DNA of 64,000 bases, taken from positions 1-64,000 of the forward strand of contig JAFXCH010000061.1 of NCBI GenBank assembly GCA_017516485.1, read 5' to 3'. Under the pieces are notes generated by a model. It was not told the origin of the DNA. It made no database searches and saw only the letters and a list, made by a program, of their open reading frames with translations. This stretch comes from Clostridia bacterium (lineage in GTDB: Bacteria > Bacillota > Clostridia > Oscillospirales > Acutalibacteraceae). Shown piece after piece: positions 3,853-54,899 of the stretch. Each line of letters begins with the position of its first letter. The stretch's first letter is position 1. Both the position numbers and the translations under genes were made by a program.

Positions 3853-3879
3853 TATTTTTGAGCGTAAGGAGGTTTGACC

Positions 3880-5886
3880 GTGGCTGAAGACAAAAAGGCG
3901 AAAAAAAGCGAATCTTCGCAGGAGCCTGATTATATTTCCGTGTCCGATATCGAGTCCGAAAGAAAAAGCGACGGACAAGCCTTAAGCGAATACGGAATTT
4001 TCGGCTTCCTTGCCGACCTTCCGATATTCGGAATAGAAAAGCCCACGCAGGAGCTTGCGCAAAAGCCCGTAAAAAAAGCTGTTGAAAATGCAGCTGAAGA
4101 GAAATCTGCAAAAGAATCTGGTGAGCGTGCACCGATAGAGCTTACCGAGCGCAGCGGAGGTGTGCTTTACGACTGGATTTATATGTTAGGTTTGGTTGTA
4201 ATACGTCGTGTGCGTTCTGCAGGTTACAAGCTCAAGTCAATTCTGCGCAAGCCTGCTCATACGATTGCGGTTTTTGCAAGCATATTTGCAGTTATATGCG
4301 ATACTCTGATGCTTCGTTCTCTGCGCAACTCCACCGAGGATTATCGCAAGTTCAAGGCTGAGGTGCGTGAGTTTACGCGCGATGTCGAGGGCGGCTTAAA
4401 AGGCTCTCCTATTAAAAATATCAAGAAATTACCGTCTTATATCAAGAAGGCTTATAAACGCCATACAAGATTTTTCAAAACCGTATTCAATACGGCAATT
4501 CCCGTAGCTGCTCTGATTGTGCTTGTCACCACCGTCAGCTCATGGACAAGCTCTACCTATGCACTTGAAGTTATTGTTGAAAACAATGGTGAAATGTGTT
4601 CGCTCGGTTATATAAAAGATGAATCTGTTTTCATCGAAGCCCGTACAATTGTTAAAGAGAGAATTGACTCGGGTGCCGCCGGTAATGAGGATACACTTAT
4701 TGCAAATCCGACCTATAAAATTACCCGTGTCAAGCTCAATCAGCTCAGTGATGCCAATGCAATAAGCGATAAGTTGATTGAAAATTCAGATTCAAAGCTT
4801 ACCAATGCCTGTGGTGTTTATATTGACGGCGATTTTATATGCGCTGTTAAAAATGAAACCGATGCACGAAGCGTGTTCAACAACATTCTGCGTGCGGCAG
4901 AAGAAAAATATAAGATTGATTCAAATGATGAAAACTCATTTGCAGACTTTGTAGAGGATGTCGAATTCGTTCAGGGTCTTTATTCCGACGATGCAAACAT
5001 AATGTGGGAAGCATCAAAGTTGCTCGATGTGCTCGAAAACGAGAAAAAGAGCGAGGCTGTATATTATACAATACAAGAAGGCGATACACCTTCGGGTATT
5101 GCATCCAGGTTTGATATTTCTATATCAGAGCTTATGGCGCTCAATCCTGATGTTGATTTCAAGATTTTCAAAATAGGCGAAGAACTTACAATTTCAGCCG
5201 AAGTCAGCTTTGTCCGAGTTGAAATAATCAAAGTTGAAGAGAGAAATGTTTCTGTGCCTTACGAGACTGAAACAGTTGAATCCTCAAAACTTTTCCGTGG
5301 TGACAAGCGAGTAATCCGCAAGGGTGTCAAGGGTACAGATAAGGTGACATATCTTGTCACTTATGTTGACGGTGTACAGACTGAGTCAAAGGAAATTGAC
5401 CGTGTAACGCTTATCAAGCCGATTAACGAAAAGGTTCAGGTCGGCACAAAGAGACCGTCTGCAAGCAGCAACGGCGGCAACTATGAGGTTGTTTCAAAGG
5501 GCAAGTTTGTATGGCCTGTTTCCGGTCTTTATACGATAACATCTCACTACGGCAGCCGTCGAAGCGGTTTCCATACCGGTATTGATATTTCGGGCGGTAA
5601 TGCTTCAGGTAAGCTTGTTCTTGCTGCAGACAGCGGTACGGTTGAGCTTGTTAAATTCAGTAATAAGAGCTATGGTAACCAGGTTGTTATCAACCACGGC
5701 AACGGCGTTAAAACACGTTATGCCCATATGCTCGACGGTTCTATTTCGGTTTCCGTTGGTCAGAAGGTATCACGCGGTCAGCCCATAGGCCGTGTCGGTA
5801 ACACGGGTAACAGCTCGGGTGCGCACCTTCACTTCGAGGTTATCGTAAACGGCAACACCGTTAACCCGTATCCGTACATCAAATAA
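3880..5886 (+). CDS. Membrane-anchored LysM-G5-M23 peptidoglycan endopeptidase
   Basis: This 668-aa cell-envelope protein has an unusually long, charged cytoplasmic N-terminus. Hydrophobic stretches follow near residues 127-145 and 208-228 (AIPVAALIVLVTTVSSW). The outside part has a LysM domain (TIQEGDTPSGIASRFDIS, about 395-442), a G5 domain (about 445-520) and a C-terminal M23 metallopeptidase domain with zinc ligands in HTGIDIS and HLHFEV. M23 enzymes cut peptide cross-links in peptidoglycan; LysM and G5 bind the wall. I choose GTG at 3880, which is 7 bases from AAGGAGG. The in-frame TTG at 3874 is only one base from it. The stop codon sits just before the terminator that hosts the repeat element. 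A role in growth, division or sporulation is likely. Confidence 0.92.
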   Translation: MAEDKKAKKSESSQEPDYISVSDIESERKSDGQALSEYGIFGFLADLPIFGIEKPTQELAQKPVKKAVENAAEEKSAKESGERAPIELTERSGGVLYDWIYMLGLVVIRRVRSAGYKLKSILRKPAHTIAVFASIFAVICDTLMLRSLRNSTEDYRKFKAEVREFTRDVEGGLKGSPIKNIKKLPSYIKKAYKRHTRFFKTVFNTAIPVAALIVLVTTVSSWTSSTYALEVIVENNGEMCSLGYIKDESVFIEARTIVKERIDSGAAGNEDTLIANPTYKITRVKLNQLSDANAISDKLIENSDSKLTNACGVYIDGDFICAVKNETDARSVFNNILRAAEEKYKIDSNDENSFADFVEDVEFVQGLYSDDANIMWEASKLLDVLENEKKSEAVYYTIQEGDTPSGIASRFDISISELMALNPDVDFKIFKIGEELTISAEVSFVRVEIIKVEERNVSVPYETETVESSKLFRGDKRVIRKGVKGTDKVTYLVTYVDGVQTESKEIDRVTLIKPINEKVQVGTKRPSASSNGGNYEVVSKGKFVWPVSGLYTITSHYGSRRSGFHTGIDISGGNASGKLVLAADSGTVELVKFSNKSYGNQVVINHGNGVKTRYAHMLDGSISVSVGQKVSRGQPIGRVGNTGNSSGAHLHFEVIVNGNTVNPYPYIK

Positions 5887-5890
5887 AAGT

Positions 5891-6200
5891 AAATGCGATG
5901 CAGAAACGCCCACGCCCGATAAGACAGTATTTCTTTAAAATGCGAATTTTTTAGTACAATAATGCGTCAAATCCCACAGATATGCGTCAGCATTATCTGT
6001 GGGATTTTCCTTTTCTTGTATCTTAAAATTTCATTTTAAAGTGCTTCGCAGTTTCGTAAGAGTATAAAATTTCTTGTATCGAAGCCAAAAACGCAGCAAG
6101 GCTGTTGCCTTGCGAGGCTTTTGACAAAGATACGAGGAATTTTACTCGAGAAACAAATACTTCCTTATCGGGCGTGGGCGAAATCTGCATCGCATTTTTT
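5891..6200. terminator. Intrinsic terminator interrupted by a repeat element
   Basis: AAATGCGATGCAGA (5891-5904) and TCTGCATCGCATTT (6184-6197) are perfect reverse complements, and the right arm runs into TTTTTT. Joined together they would make a normal intrinsic terminator with a 2-4 base loop, right after the M23 peptidase stop and overlapping the rarA stop on the other strand. The 274-bp element at 5907-6180 lies exactly where the loop should be. Confidence 0.75.
5907..6180 (+). repeat. TIR-bounded structured element, copy 1
   Basis: This 274-bp non-coding element is present twice in the window (other copy 54609-54875, same orientation). The ends are imperfect inverted repeats: CGCCCACGCCCGATAAG opens it, and 27 of the first 30 bases match the reverse complement of the end. 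Inside are a long hairpin at 5970-6006 followed by TTCCTTTTCTT, a GCAAGGC-TGTT-GCCTTGC hairpin, and an outer pairing of GTATC/AAGCC with GGCTT/GATAC. Short identical bases (AA or AAA) flank it on both sides, as a target duplication would. It looks like a MITE or a mobile structured RNA. No transposase is near. Confidence 0.8.
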
Positions 6201-7461
6201 ATTTCTTTATTTTGTCCCAATAAGCCTTTGCCGCCTGCTCGTTTTTGTTGTCACCGTAGCTGTAATAAGTACGGTTTTTGATTGCATCGGGCAGGTACTG
6301 CTGTTTTATCCAATGGTTATCAAATGCGTGAGGATATTTGTAAAACTGACCTTTATGATTGTTGTCCTCACCGTCAAAGTGCATATTCTGCAGAGTCCTC
6401 GGTATCGGGCCTGTTTTGCCGGACTGTATGTCTGCAAGTGCGGCGTTTATGGCTTCGTAGGCCGAGTTTGATTTTGGCGCAGTTGCAACAAGTATTACGG
6501 CATTTGCAAGCGGAATTCGTGCCTCGGGCATACCTACCTGAAGTGCGGTATCTACAGCCGCTTTTACGATTGGTATGAGCTGAGGGTAGGCGAGACCTAC
6601 GTCTTCGTTTGCGCATACAAGCAATCTGCGGCAGGCAGATGGCAGGTCGCCTGCTTCAAGCAGACGGGCTAAATAGTGTATTGCGGCATCAGGGTCAGAA
6701 CCACGCATCGATTTCTGGTAAGCAGATACAATGTCATAGTGCTCGTCGCCTTCTTTGTCGTATTTGAAAGCACTTCTCTGTGTGAGCTGCTCGGCAATTT
6801 CAAGCGTTACTATACGCTTGTTGTCTACGGTCTGTGATGCCATAGCACAAAGCTCTGCCGAATTCATAGCTTTGCGTACATCACCGCCGCAACCGCAGGC
6901 TATGTGATGCAGTACACCGTCCTCAAGCTCGAAAGGTAAGCCGCCTTCTTCGGCAAGGAAGTTGAATGCACGCATAATTGCAGGCTCAATTTCCTTGGGC
7001 GTAATGCTCTTGAATTCAAATACCGTTGAGCGGCTGAGCACAGCGTTGTAAACATAGAAATACGGGTTTTCGGTAGTGGAAGCAATCAGCGTGATTGAGC
7101 CGTCTTCGATGTATTCGAGCAGAGTTTGCTGCTGCTTTTTGTTGAAGTACTGAATCTCGTCAAGGTACAGAAGTACGCCGTTGATTGCGCTGAGTGTTTG
7201 CGACTGTGCGATTATATCTTTGATATCTGCAGTTGAGGCAGTTGTGCCGTTGAGCTTGCAGAAGTATTTGTTTGTGCGCTTTGCGAGTATTTCGGCAAGT
7301 GTTGTTTTGCCGACACCTGACGGGCCGTAAAATATAAGGTTTGGTACTTCGCCCGAATCAATTATACGGCGCAGTGCCTTGCCCTCGCCGAGCAGATGTC
7401 TCTGCCCGACCATATCGTCAATGCTCTGCGGTCTGAGTCTGTCAGCAAGCGGGTTTCTCAT
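6199..7461 (-). CDS. rarA: Replication-associated recombination protein RarA (MgsA), AAA+ ATPase
   Basis: RarA is a clamp-loader-like AAA+ ATPase that acts at stalled replication forks. The 420-aa protein begins MRNPLADRLRPQSIDDMVGQ, the family's typical N-terminus. Walker A is GPSGVGKTT (Lys52), Walker B is LLYLDEIQYF, and sensor 1 is in ASTTENPYF. The C-terminal tetramerisation region includes KGQFYKYPHAFDNHW. I start at ATG 7461, with AAAGGTG 8 bases upstream, not at 7494. The stop overlaps the T-tract of the interrupted terminator, so this gene is convergent with the peptidase gene. Confidence 0.96.
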   Translation of the reverse strand: MRNPLADRLRPQSIDDMVGQRHLLGEGKALRRIIDSGEVPNLIFYGPSGVGKTTLAEILAKRTNKYFCKLNGTTASTADIKDIIAQSQTLSAINGVLLYLDEIQYFNKKQQQTLLEYIEDGSITLIASTTENPYFYVYNAVLSRSTVFEFKSITPKEIEPAIMRAFNFLAEEGGLPFELEDGVLHHIACGCGGDVRKAMNSAELCAMASQTVDNKRIVTLEIAEQLTQRSAFKYDKEGDEHYDIVSAYQKSMRGSDPDAAIHYLARLLEAGDLPSACRRLLVCANEDVGLAYPQLIPIVKAAVDTALQVGMPEARIPLANAVILVATAPKSNSAYEAINAALADIQSGKTGPIPRTLQNMHFDGEDNNHKGQFYKYPHAFDNHWIKQQYLPDAIKNRTYYSYGDNKNEQAAKAYWDKIKK

Positions 7462-7681
7462 TACTCTCACACCTTTTAAAAATCTTGCATTCAATTTTAC
7501 ATTATATATGTGTTTTTTTCAAGTAGTATGCAAAAACAACAGAAAATCATTATTTTGCAGGCGAAATATACTTTATTTTGTGAATTGTAATTATATTTAA
7601 TATAAGGTATAATTTAGACTGTTGTATTATGTATAAGACTTTTTCTGCCATAAAACATATAATGGTAAAGGTGAATTGATT

Positions 7682-27210: not shown

Positions 27211-27221
27211 TAATACTTGCA

Positions 27222-27318
27222 ACTCTTAAAATTCCTACGCCGGCATTACCCGGATCAGGTTCAAGGGTTACGGGCTTAAAAGCCCGAATCTCAGCCGATA
27301 ACATCAGCACCCCATTTG
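27222..27318 (-). ncRNA. TPP riboswitch (THI box)
   Basis: Read on the minus strand, the conserved aptamer parts occur in order: GGGGTGC, then GGCTGAGA, a CGGGC/GCCCG hairpin, ACCCTTGAACCTGATC, and GGGTAATGCCGGCGTAGGAA. Binding of thiamine diphosphate would favour the terminator at 27210-27174 and switch off thiT. Confidence 0.96.
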
Positions 27319-27339
27319 GCATTTTCAATTGTCAAAGTG

Positions 27340-27611: not shown

Positions 27612-27687
27612 TGGAGCGGATGACGAGGCTCGAACTCGCTACCTCCACCTTGGCAAGGTGGCGCTCTACCAGATGAGCTACATCCGC
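27612..27687 (-). tRNA. tRNA-Gly (anticodon GCC), CCA encoded
   Basis: On the minus strand GCGGATG at the 5' end pairs with CATCCGC at the 3' end, followed by discriminator T and an encoded CCA. The anticodon stem CCACC/GGTGG holds the loop TTGCCAA, giving anticodon GCC. The T-loop GTTCGAGCC is normal. A consensus promoter and a terminator flank it, so it is transcribed alone. Confidence 0.97.
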
Positions 27688-32493: not shown

Positions 32494-32563
32494 ATGTCAT
32501 CCTGAACGAAGTGAAGGATATTAAATAATAAGATTCTTCGTCGTTTCACTCCTCAGAATGACA
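32494..32563. repeat. TGTCATCCTGA palindromic repeat (left of GIY-YIG); contains left 42-bp direct repeat
   Basis: An inverted repeat whose left arm starts ATGTCATCCTGAACGAAG and whose right arm ends CCTCAGAATGACA. Bases 32494-32535 are identical to 33010-33051, a 42-bp direct repeat that brackets the nuclease gene. Confidence 0.8.
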
Positions 32564-32918: not shown

Positions 32919-32920
32919 GT

Positions 32921-32995
32921 TGTCATTCTGAACGAAGTGAAGAATCTTCAGCTTATATTTCAAGATTCTTCGTCGCTTTGCTCCTCAGAATGACA
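32921..32995. repeat. TGTCATTCTGA palindromic repeat right of the GIY-YIG gene
   Basis: Left arm TGTCATTCTGAACGAAG, right arm CTCCTCAGAATGACA, loop near 32955. It starts three bases after the nuclease stop codon. Confidence 0.8.
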
Positions 32996-33009: not shown

Positions 33010-33051
33010 ATGTCATCCTGAACGAAGTGAAGGATATTAAATAATAAGATT
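33010..33051 (+). repeat. Right copy of the 42-bp direct repeat
   Basis: Identical at all 42 positions to 32494-32535, but here only the left arm of the palindrome is present and unrelated terminator sequence follows. Confidence 0.85.
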
Positions 33052-54461: not shown

Positions 54462-54606
54462 AAAGGTTTGTAAAATTATGAGTACAATGGGCTCGGCAAA
54501 CAAGCTGATTAGAATTCTTACTGTATTGAGGCTGACTGTTTTTGCAGGTGCGTTTGTTTATGCCGGTGTGATGTTTGTTTCGATTATAAAACAATTGCGT
54601 GCGTGA
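54454..54606 (+). CDS. Small membrane protein, 50 aa, overlapping the end of spoVAD
   Basis: ATG 54454 lies in the last codons of spoVAD (eight-base overlap, different frame) with GGAG upstream. The product starts MLEKVCKIMSTMGSANKLIR and contains one membrane segment (about 27-45, LTVFAGAFVYAGVMFVSII). It ends at TGA 54604-54606, which is part of the left arm of the next interrupted terminator. The overlap suggests translational coupling and a sporulation role. It is too short to be SpoVAE. Confidence 0.55.
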   Translation: MLEKVCKIMSTMGSANKLIRILTVLRLTVFAGAFVYAGVMFVSIIKQLRA

Positions 54607-54893
54607 TTCGCCCACGCCCGATAAGGCAGTATTTCTTTAAAATGTGAATTTTCGGTACAATAATGCGTCAAACTCCCCCGATATACGCGAGTATTATCGG
54701 GGGAGTTTTCCTTTTCTTGCTTCTTAAAATTTTAAAGTGCTTCGCAGTTTCGTAAGAGTATAAAATTCTTGTATCGAAGCCAAAAACACAGCAAGGCTGT
54801 CGCCTTGCGAGGCTTTTGTCAAAGATACGGGGAATTTTACTCGAGAAACAAATACTTCCTTACCGGGCTTGGGCGTTATGTCACGCACTTTTT
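54599..54893. terminator. Second intrinsic terminator interrupted by the repeat element
   Basis: GTGCGTGA (54599-54606) and TCACGCAC (54881-54888) pair, and TTTTTGTTTT follows. Without the 267-bp element the loop would be about five bases. The stem sequence differs from that of the terminator at 5891-6200. Confidence 0.7.
54609..54875 (+). repeat. TIR-bounded structured element, copy 2
   Basis: This 267-bp copy is highly similar to 5907-6180 and in the same orientation. It starts CGCCCACGCCCGATAAGG and 26 of 30 terminal bases match the reverse complement of its end. TT flanks both sides. The internal hairpin (54671-54707) has the same shape as in copy 1 but a changed sequence, with pairing kept. 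It lies between the spoVAD unit and the promoter of the third GH16 gene. Confidence 0.8.
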
Positions 54894-54899
54894 GTTTTC

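What the first reader, a model, noticed from the sequence alone, without database searches (positions are those of the whole stretch)
5891..6200. Both copies sit in the loop of an intrinsic terminator
Seen: copy 1 is flanked by AAATGCGATGCAGA and its exact reverse complement followed by TTTTTT. Copy 2 is flanked by GTGCGTGA and TCACGCAC followed by TTTTTGTTTT. The flanks differ in sequence between copies but both rebuild a normal terminator when the element is removed. Inference: insertion targets terminator hairpins as a shape, a safe harbour that spares genes. Alternatively the flank stem is a variable part of one larger RNA.
Basis: partly seen in the sequence, partly recalled or inferred. 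Interest (0 to 1): 0.78.

Follow-up and report, generated by a model that had tools for sequence, protein, structure and literature searches.

The report
Mobile hairpin inserted in terminator loops
A short, strongly folded piece of mobile DNA in gut bacteria inserts mainly into the small loop of the hairpins that end transcription, apparently leaving the host hairpin able to re-form around it.

Summary
The window holds two copies (5907-6180, 54609-54875) of an element of about 270 nt; the genome has four. In 71 distinct full-length copies from this bacterial family, the flanks without the element fold at a mean of -17.7 kcal/mol, against -7.5 for flanks swapped between copies; 47 of 71 lie below the 1st percentile of 4,970 swaps, and 55 of 71 carry the same dinucleotide on both sides. 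Seven of twelve occupied sites tested have empty counterparts in other species of the genus. In 16 of 18 comparisons the empty site has a hairpin with the junction in its loop; four have exactly the length that a 2-bp duplication predicts. One copy sits beside a T-box leader match, in the terminator before thrS. The outer stem varies in sequence yet stays paired. I conclude: a non-autonomous, MITE-like element that targets terminator loops by shape. Terminator targeting is known (IS1272, group IIC introns); insertion inside the loop with a 2-bp duplication I did not find in print. No mobilising enzyme was found; that step is inferred.

The parts
5891..5904 (+). 5' arm of host terminator stem, copy 1 (AAATGCGATGCAGA)
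   Evidence: read; pairs with 6184-6197 in the fold
5905..5906 (+). AA, left copy of the 2-bp target duplication
   Evidence: same AA at 6181-6182; 55 of 71 copies have the same dinucleotide on both sides
5907..6180 (+). mobile structured element, copy 1 (274 nt)
   Evidence: repeat of 54609-54875, 4 copies in the genome, fold z -18.9 with host flanks included
5907..5924 (+). outer stem of the element, 5' half (pairs with 6163-6180)
   Evidence: covarying helix 1
5969..6007 (+). internal covarying hairpin
   Evidence: helix 3: 12 of 17 pairs with changes on both sides
6071..6138 (+). right arm (6071-6080 with 6129-6138), many G-U pairs
   Evidence: helix 4; G-U 128 to A-C 9 over 56 copies
6181..6182 (+). 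AA, right copy of the 2-bp target duplication
6184..6200 (+). 3' arm of host terminator stem plus T run, copy 1
   Evidence: 6184-6197 is the exact reverse complement of 5891-5904
54599..54606 (+). 5' arm of host terminator stem, copy 2 (GTGCGTGA; its TGA is the stop of a 50-codon ORF read by eye)
54607..54608 (+). TT, left copy of target duplication, copy 2
54609..54875 (+). mobile structured element, copy 2 (267 nt)
54876..54877 (+). TT, right copy of target duplication, copy 2
54881..54898 (+). 3' arm of host terminator stem and T tract, copy 2

Best explanation
This is a non-autonomous mobile element of about 270 nt that inserts into the small loop (3-8 nt in 65 of 71 refolded sites) of intrinsic-terminator hairpins, recognised by fold rather than by sequence, and duplicates two mostly A/T bases. 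Shown from sequence: insertion in the loop, hairpin present beforehand, duplicated dinucleotide, mixed orientation, strong fold, ends that vary but stay complementary. Inferred: a transposase acting in trans (DDE type most likely, because of the short duplication and inverted ends) recognises an extruded hairpin in the target and the hairpin-forming ends of the element, and joins the ends across a 2-bp stagger in the loop. Also inferred: because the element is itself a closed hairpin, its ends lie side by side in the RNA, so the host stem can close again above the U tract and termination can survive.
For: 71 copies against cross-paired flanks; 55 of 71 same dinucleotide against 31% for swaps. 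Empty sites: 7 of 12 sites, 18 comparisons, no element, junction in a hairpin loop in 16 of 18; L345, L378, L346 and L357 have exactly the length of filled site minus element minus 2 bp. The empty counterpart of the window's copy 1 in G007 is scored as a 14-pair terminator. Mixed orientation. 49 of 50 copies with an ORF called on both sides have at least one reading into the site, 26 of them convergent (crude calls, L015 at least is miscalled). Two 44-nt mini forms with the same ends in one genome. Fold z -18.9 and -9.2 and -10.6 for the T-box copy with the host stem closed; all three folds include host flanks. Covariation: 36 of 61 pairs change on both sides against 22.6 in shuffles (43 copies).
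Against: No mobilising enzyme or autonomous version found: the end motif TAAGGMAGTATTTSTTT occurs exactly in 20 of 398 family genomes, and the 20 regions fetched (of 71 listed places, the list being capped per genome) held about 275-nt copies, copies cut by contig ends, partial copies or one stray match, no long element. 16 of 71 copies lack a strong flank hairpin and 16 of 71 lack identical dinucleotides. In 14 of 18 empty-site comparisons the loop length differs from the prediction, as expected for diverged species but no support. Nearby windows fold at -21.7 or better 1% of the time, so single sites are not extreme. Termination with the element in place was not measured.
Confidence: 0.77

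Rival explanations
1. Survivorship: the element inserts broadly, and only copies in terminator loops are kept because they do no harm.
For: Copies lie mostly between genes, about half of those with ORFs called on both sides between convergent ones (26 of 50).
Against: Ordinary intergenic sites outside loops should be equally harmless, yet 66 of 71 junctions have 7 or more enclosing pairs and a loop of 10 nt or less; on the first 56 copies 52 of 56 against 1,110 of 3,607 nearby windows by this lax criterion. A T-box terminator is not a neutral site.
Confidence: 0.12
2. The flank stems are a variable part of one larger structured RNA.
For: Flank stem and element fold as one long hairpin.
Against: Empty sites keep hairpins without the element; junction dinucleotides are direct repeats (AA/AA, TT/TT), not complementary; orientation to the T tract is mixed.
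Confidence: 0.02
3. Single-strand hairpin transposition or template switching: a folded DNA strand of the element is joined into another hairpin loop, for example by an HUH (Y1) enzyme.
For: In the outer stem and internal hairpin A-C mismatches are at least as common as G-U (29 to 18 and 20 to 6), as for a DNA palindrome. Y1-type hits occur in 7 of 11 genus genomes.
Against: The target dinucleotide appears duplicated, which known Y1 elements do not do (recalled). G010, with many copies and mini forms, has no Y1 hit, though it is a draft assembly.
Confidence: 0.15
4. An IS1182-family transposase mobilises it (a special case of the best explanation).
For: IS1272 of this family targets stem-loops and terminators by structure (PMC5678879, PMC4923244, abstract of the first and passages of both seen); a loop-duplication pathway is drawn in the first as a possibility. 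In G005, elements with a DUF772 transposase, which I take for IS1182-like, are flanked by duplicated whole hairpins.
Against: The G005 element ends (CAGCCTGTCGAAAAA) do not resemble these. DUF772 hits in only 2 of 11 genus genomes and 2 of 12 other genomes with the end motif. Draft MAGs often lose IS copies, so absence is weak.
Confidence: 0.2

Closest known systems
IS1272 / TnSha1 (IS1182 family) of staphylococci
   Same: Targets stem-loops, several confirmed as terminators, by structure without sequence consensus, and in both orientations at one target (PMC5678879: abstract and passages; PMC4923244: passages).
   Different: Carries a transposase; the hairpin is replaced or partly deleted; no target duplication. 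Here the hairpin is kept and two bases appear duplicated.
Group IIC introns
   Same: Insert at intrinsic terminators (PMC4424553, passages seen) and carry structured RNA.
   Different: Insert after the terminator motif as retroelements; larger, with a reverse transcriptase, no inverted ends (recalled).
ISPsy8 (IS3 family) in REP palindromes
   Same: Inserts at the symmetry axis of a predicted hairpin with a 3-bp direct repeat (PMC1525189, passages seen).
   Different: Target is one REP sequence family, not terminators of any sequence.
Structured small repeats and MITEs (BOX, RUP, bcr1, QMITE; ERIC recalled)
   Same: Short, non-coding, mostly intergenic elements whose transcripts form stable folds (PMC10969869 and PMC6542083, passages seen).
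   Different: No hairpin-loop target specificity stated in the passages seen.

Membership tests
MITE (miniature inverted-repeat transposable element) | short, no transposase gene, terminal inverted repeats | tested here: met
   69 of 71 copies are 267-277 nt (one 253, one 283 with uncertain ends); complementary ends of 16-18 bp, 95.5% of cells paired in 43 copies
MITE (miniature inverted-repeat transposable element) | target site duplication, empty sites | tested here: met
   same dinucleotide in 55 of 71; 18 empty comparisons, 4 with exactly the length of a 2-bp duplication, 14 differing in loop length
MITE (miniature inverted-repeat transposable element) | ends shared with an autonomous element that moves it | tested here: inconclusive
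   none seen in 20 regions fetched from a search of 398 family genomes by end motif; draft MAGs lose IS copies
IS1182 family derivative | target hairpin replaced or deleted, no duplication (as in IS1272) | tested here: not met
   hairpin kept, dinucleotide duplicated
IS1182 family derivative | ends match those of an IS1182-like element in the same genome | tested here: not met
   G005 elements end in CAGCCTGTCGAAAAA; ends of the G010 one were not found
Group IIC intron | match to a group II intron model | tested here: not met
   no match at gathering score in the window besides TPP and tRNA; weak hits only, none a group II intron, at E up to 10
Known Rfam RNA family | match to a curated model | tested here: not met
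REP/REPIN with RAYT | Y1 transposase gene flanked by the repeat | not tested
   Y1 hits listed; their flanks were not compared with the element

The most novel reading that the evidence does not exclude
A hairpin-into-hairpin transposition system in which fold is recognised on both sides: the target is any terminator loop, and the donor ends are recognised as a stem whose middle base pairs are free to vary (41 different 10-mers among 56 copies) but must pair. The substrate would be folded single-stranded or cruciform DNA, and the element's own closed fold would keep the invaded terminators and attenuators working.
Probability: 0.3. Interest if true: 0.8.

Novelty: new variant of a known kind. 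Interest (0 to 1): 0.63.

Why it matters
It would be a mobile element that uses a structure found all over bacterial genomes, the terminator hairpin, as a landing site without destroying it. That makes two questions testable: how a transposase reads a DNA fold instead of a sequence, and whether a terminator or a T-box attenuator still works with a 275-nt folded insert in its loop. Its varying but paired ends also offer a natural test of structure recognition on the donor side.

Tried and rejected
Autonomous partner: pairs of the end motif at long spacing were sought in 11 genus genomes with one mismatch and in 398 family genomes exactly. Twenty regions fetched and twenty held element copies, copies broken at contig ends, decayed or mini copies, a stray match, or no element; the other listed places were not fetched. 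Enzyme families sought in the genus: DUF772 in 2 of 11 genomes, Y1 in 7 of 11, rve in 4 of 11; none follows the element. G010, 99% complete with many copies, has one DUF772 hit and neither Y1 nor rve.

RNA or DNA selection: I asked whether G-U or A-C mismatches in the outer stem depend on terminator orientation; they do not. Right-arm pairs show G-U 128 to A-C 9, which suggests sense-strand RNA there; I cannot say what it does. The antisense consensus fold is more stable than the sense one (-97 against -84).

Distribution: 391 class genomes gave, besides the own genome, 7 with only 26-86 nt matches (E 5e-5 or weaker), which I read as chance terminator-like matches.

Rows dropped: the first 32 copies were picked by hand as full-length from loci L001-L060, leaving out partial, cut and repeated ones. 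One search added 24 from L211-L310 with filters (under 200 nt, too near a contig end, repeated flank) whose numbers were not printed. One search added 15 from 69 further loci, dropping 37 short, 13 cut and 10 repeated matches; L061-L090 were not mined. Thirteen copies of 56 (uncertain ends or near-repeats, chosen by eye) were left out of the 43-row alignment, which flatters the percentage paired; on all 56 rows 4,119 of 4,247 cells of the RNAalifold structure pair (structure derived from those rows). Ends of L296, L307, L310 and L313 are uncertain. Empty sites were taken where a match spanned the joined flanks: 7 of 12 sites; the other five (L002, L003, L004, L011, L012) had no spanning match in the capped list. 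L379 and L380 are only 68 and 66% identical; in L379 the junction lies 7 nt from the nearest loop.

Full report
What is there. The window comes from a draft genome of 2.17 Mb in 65 contigs. Named contigs with the element's core are MAGs labelled Oscillospiraceae or Clostridia, many from ruminant guts. Two copies of a repeat lie at 5907-6180 and 54609-54875, with two more elsewhere in the genome. Next to the element stand AA on both sides in copy 1 and TT on both sides in copy 2. These are direct repeats, not complementary bases.

Genes around. Copy 1 lies between two convergent ORFs, 3874-5886 on + and 6199-7494 on -. From their sequences I take them for a LysM/M23-type peptidase and a RarA-like ATPase (recalled; no family search run). 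Copy 2 follows a 50-codon ORF whose stop is the last three bases of the 5' arm (read by eye) and precedes an ORF of 302 aa.

How general it is. In the genus, 8 of 11 genomes match at E 0.001 or better; one, G002, has only 38-39 nt weak matches, so I count 7 of 11. In the family, 38 of 300 genomes match, 27 of them at 1e-15 or better. In the class, 391 genomes show nothing convincing beyond the own genome. Over I collected 71 distinct full-length copies with both flanks; 69 are 267-277 nt long, one 253 and one 283.

Flank test. With the element and one copy of a shared dinucleotide removed, the 71 flank pairs fold at a mean of -17.7 kcal/mol; all 4,970 left-right swaps give -7.5, sd 3.5. 47 of 71 lie below the 1st percentile of swaps and 55 of 71 below the 5th; 66 of 71 have at least 7 enclosing pairs and a loop of at most 10 nt. 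16 of 71 miss the 5th percentile; some look decayed, some may never have been terminators. Against nearby native windows (4,509, mean -9.6) 17, 43 and 51 of 71 lie below the 1st, 5th and 10th percentiles; with geometry and energy together it is 46 of 56 copies against 390 of 3,607 windows. 55 of 71 copies have identical dinucleotides on both sides (TT 25, AA 22, TA 7, GC 1), against 31% for swaps.

Empty sites. I joined the flanks of 12 occupied sites and searched the genus. For 7 sites a match ran through the junction in one or more other species, 18 comparisons in all; the other five sites had no spanning match in the capped list. None of the 18 shows the element. Refolding each, the aligned junction falls inside the loop of a hairpin of 11 or more pairs in 16 of 18, one base outside it in L367, and 7 nt away in L379, which is only 68% identical and doubtful. 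In L345, L378, L346 and L357 the length is exactly that of the filled site minus the element and 2 bp; in the other 14 the loop differs in length, as diverged species would. The empty counterpart of the window's copy 1 in G007 (L349) is read by the terminator scan as a 14-pair stem followed by TTTCTTGCTT. So hairpins stand at these places without the element, and the simplest reading is that the element came into their loops with a 2-bp duplication.

A regulated site. In G007 the element (L015:1488-1760) begins five bases after a T-box leader match (RF00230, 1252-1483, 82.2 bits, E 5.6e-17, under the curated cut-off of 93), in the loop of the hairpin ACTTCACCCTGTA/TACAGGGTGGAGT that is followed by a T tract. 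Four related genomes examined have the same leader match and an empty hairpin. The next gene has TGS, tRNA_SAD and class II synthetase domains, that is a threonyl-tRNA synthetase. The predicted fold closes the host stem around the element. Whether attenuation still works is not known.

Orientation. Of 56 copies, the T tract lies in sense to the element in 16, opposite in 9, on both sides in 21, unclear in 10. With crude ORF calls, 50 copies have an ORF on both sides: 26 convergent, 14 and 9 codirectional, 1 divergent (L015 at least is miscalled). This fits insertion in either orientation at terminators.

The element itself. With its host flanks it folds far better than shuffles: z -18.9 and -9.2 as RNA and -17.1 as DNA. 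On 43 of 56 copies a structure of 61 pairs is 96.7% paired against 84.7% in shuffles; 36 pairs change on both sides against 22.6, and the covariation score is 0.363 against 0.137, falling to 0.041-0.074 when partners are slid. The outer stem has conserved first four pairs and conserved pairs 15, 17 and 18, while its middle varies: 41 different 10-mers in 56 copies. In the outer stem and internal hairpin A-C mismatches are at least as common as G-U (29 to 18 and 20 to 6), the pattern of a DNA palindrome or of selection on both strands. The right arm has many G-U and few A-C pairs (128 to 9), the pattern of a sense-strand RNA. Mini forms of 44 nt (two places in G010) and 61 nt (G142) keep only the ends; the 44-nt ones have AA on both sides, and only the flanks of L219 form a strong hairpin (-14.5; L218 -6.9, L216 -8.3). 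Two equal mini forms in one genome suggest that the interior is not needed for spread.

How it most likely works. Shown: hairpin at the empty sites, insertion into its loop, duplicated dinucleotide, mixed orientation, structured ends. Inferred: a trans-acting transposase recognises the extruded target hairpin and the paired ends. Wan and colleagues (PMC5678879, abstract and passages seen) drew, for IS1272, a pathway in which the ends attack at the loop and only the loop is duplicated; what they observed for IS1272 was replacement of the hairpin. The pattern here looks like that drawn loop pathway. Furi and colleagues (PMC4923244, passages seen) confirmed several TnSha1 targets as terminators from RNA-seq. 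I found no enzyme for the present element.

Novelty. In nine full-text searches, of which I opened passages of seven papers and otherwise saw only listings, I saw no description of an element that sits in terminator loops with a 2-bp duplication. Most subscription papers are not in that library. Terminator targeting as such is known. I rate this a new variant of a known kind.

Noticed in passing
L384 and L386 (genome G005, contigs C9 and C15): Elements with a DUF772 transposase flanked on both sides by a full copy of a terminator-like hairpin, as if the whole target stem-loop had been duplicated.
   Followed up: partly
L218:2482-2525, L219:2014-2057, L216:2005-2065: Mini forms (44, 44 and 61 nt) of the element, ends only.
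   Followed up: partly
L012 right flank; query 4992-5060: A palindromic repeat of about 68 bp (GGGGCGGATATTATCCGCCC and on) with many copies in genomes G002 and G006.
   Followed up: no
window 32494-32535, 32920-32961 and 33010-33051: Direct repeats of the type TGTCATCCTGAACGAAGTGAAGGAT.
   Followed up: no
window 27215-27324 (-): TPP riboswitch match, with a tRNA at 27615-27687 (-).
   Followed up: no
L395:2600-2860 (G344): A shorter copy with an extra terminator-like hairpin next to its end, inside what looks like another terminator.
   Followed up: no
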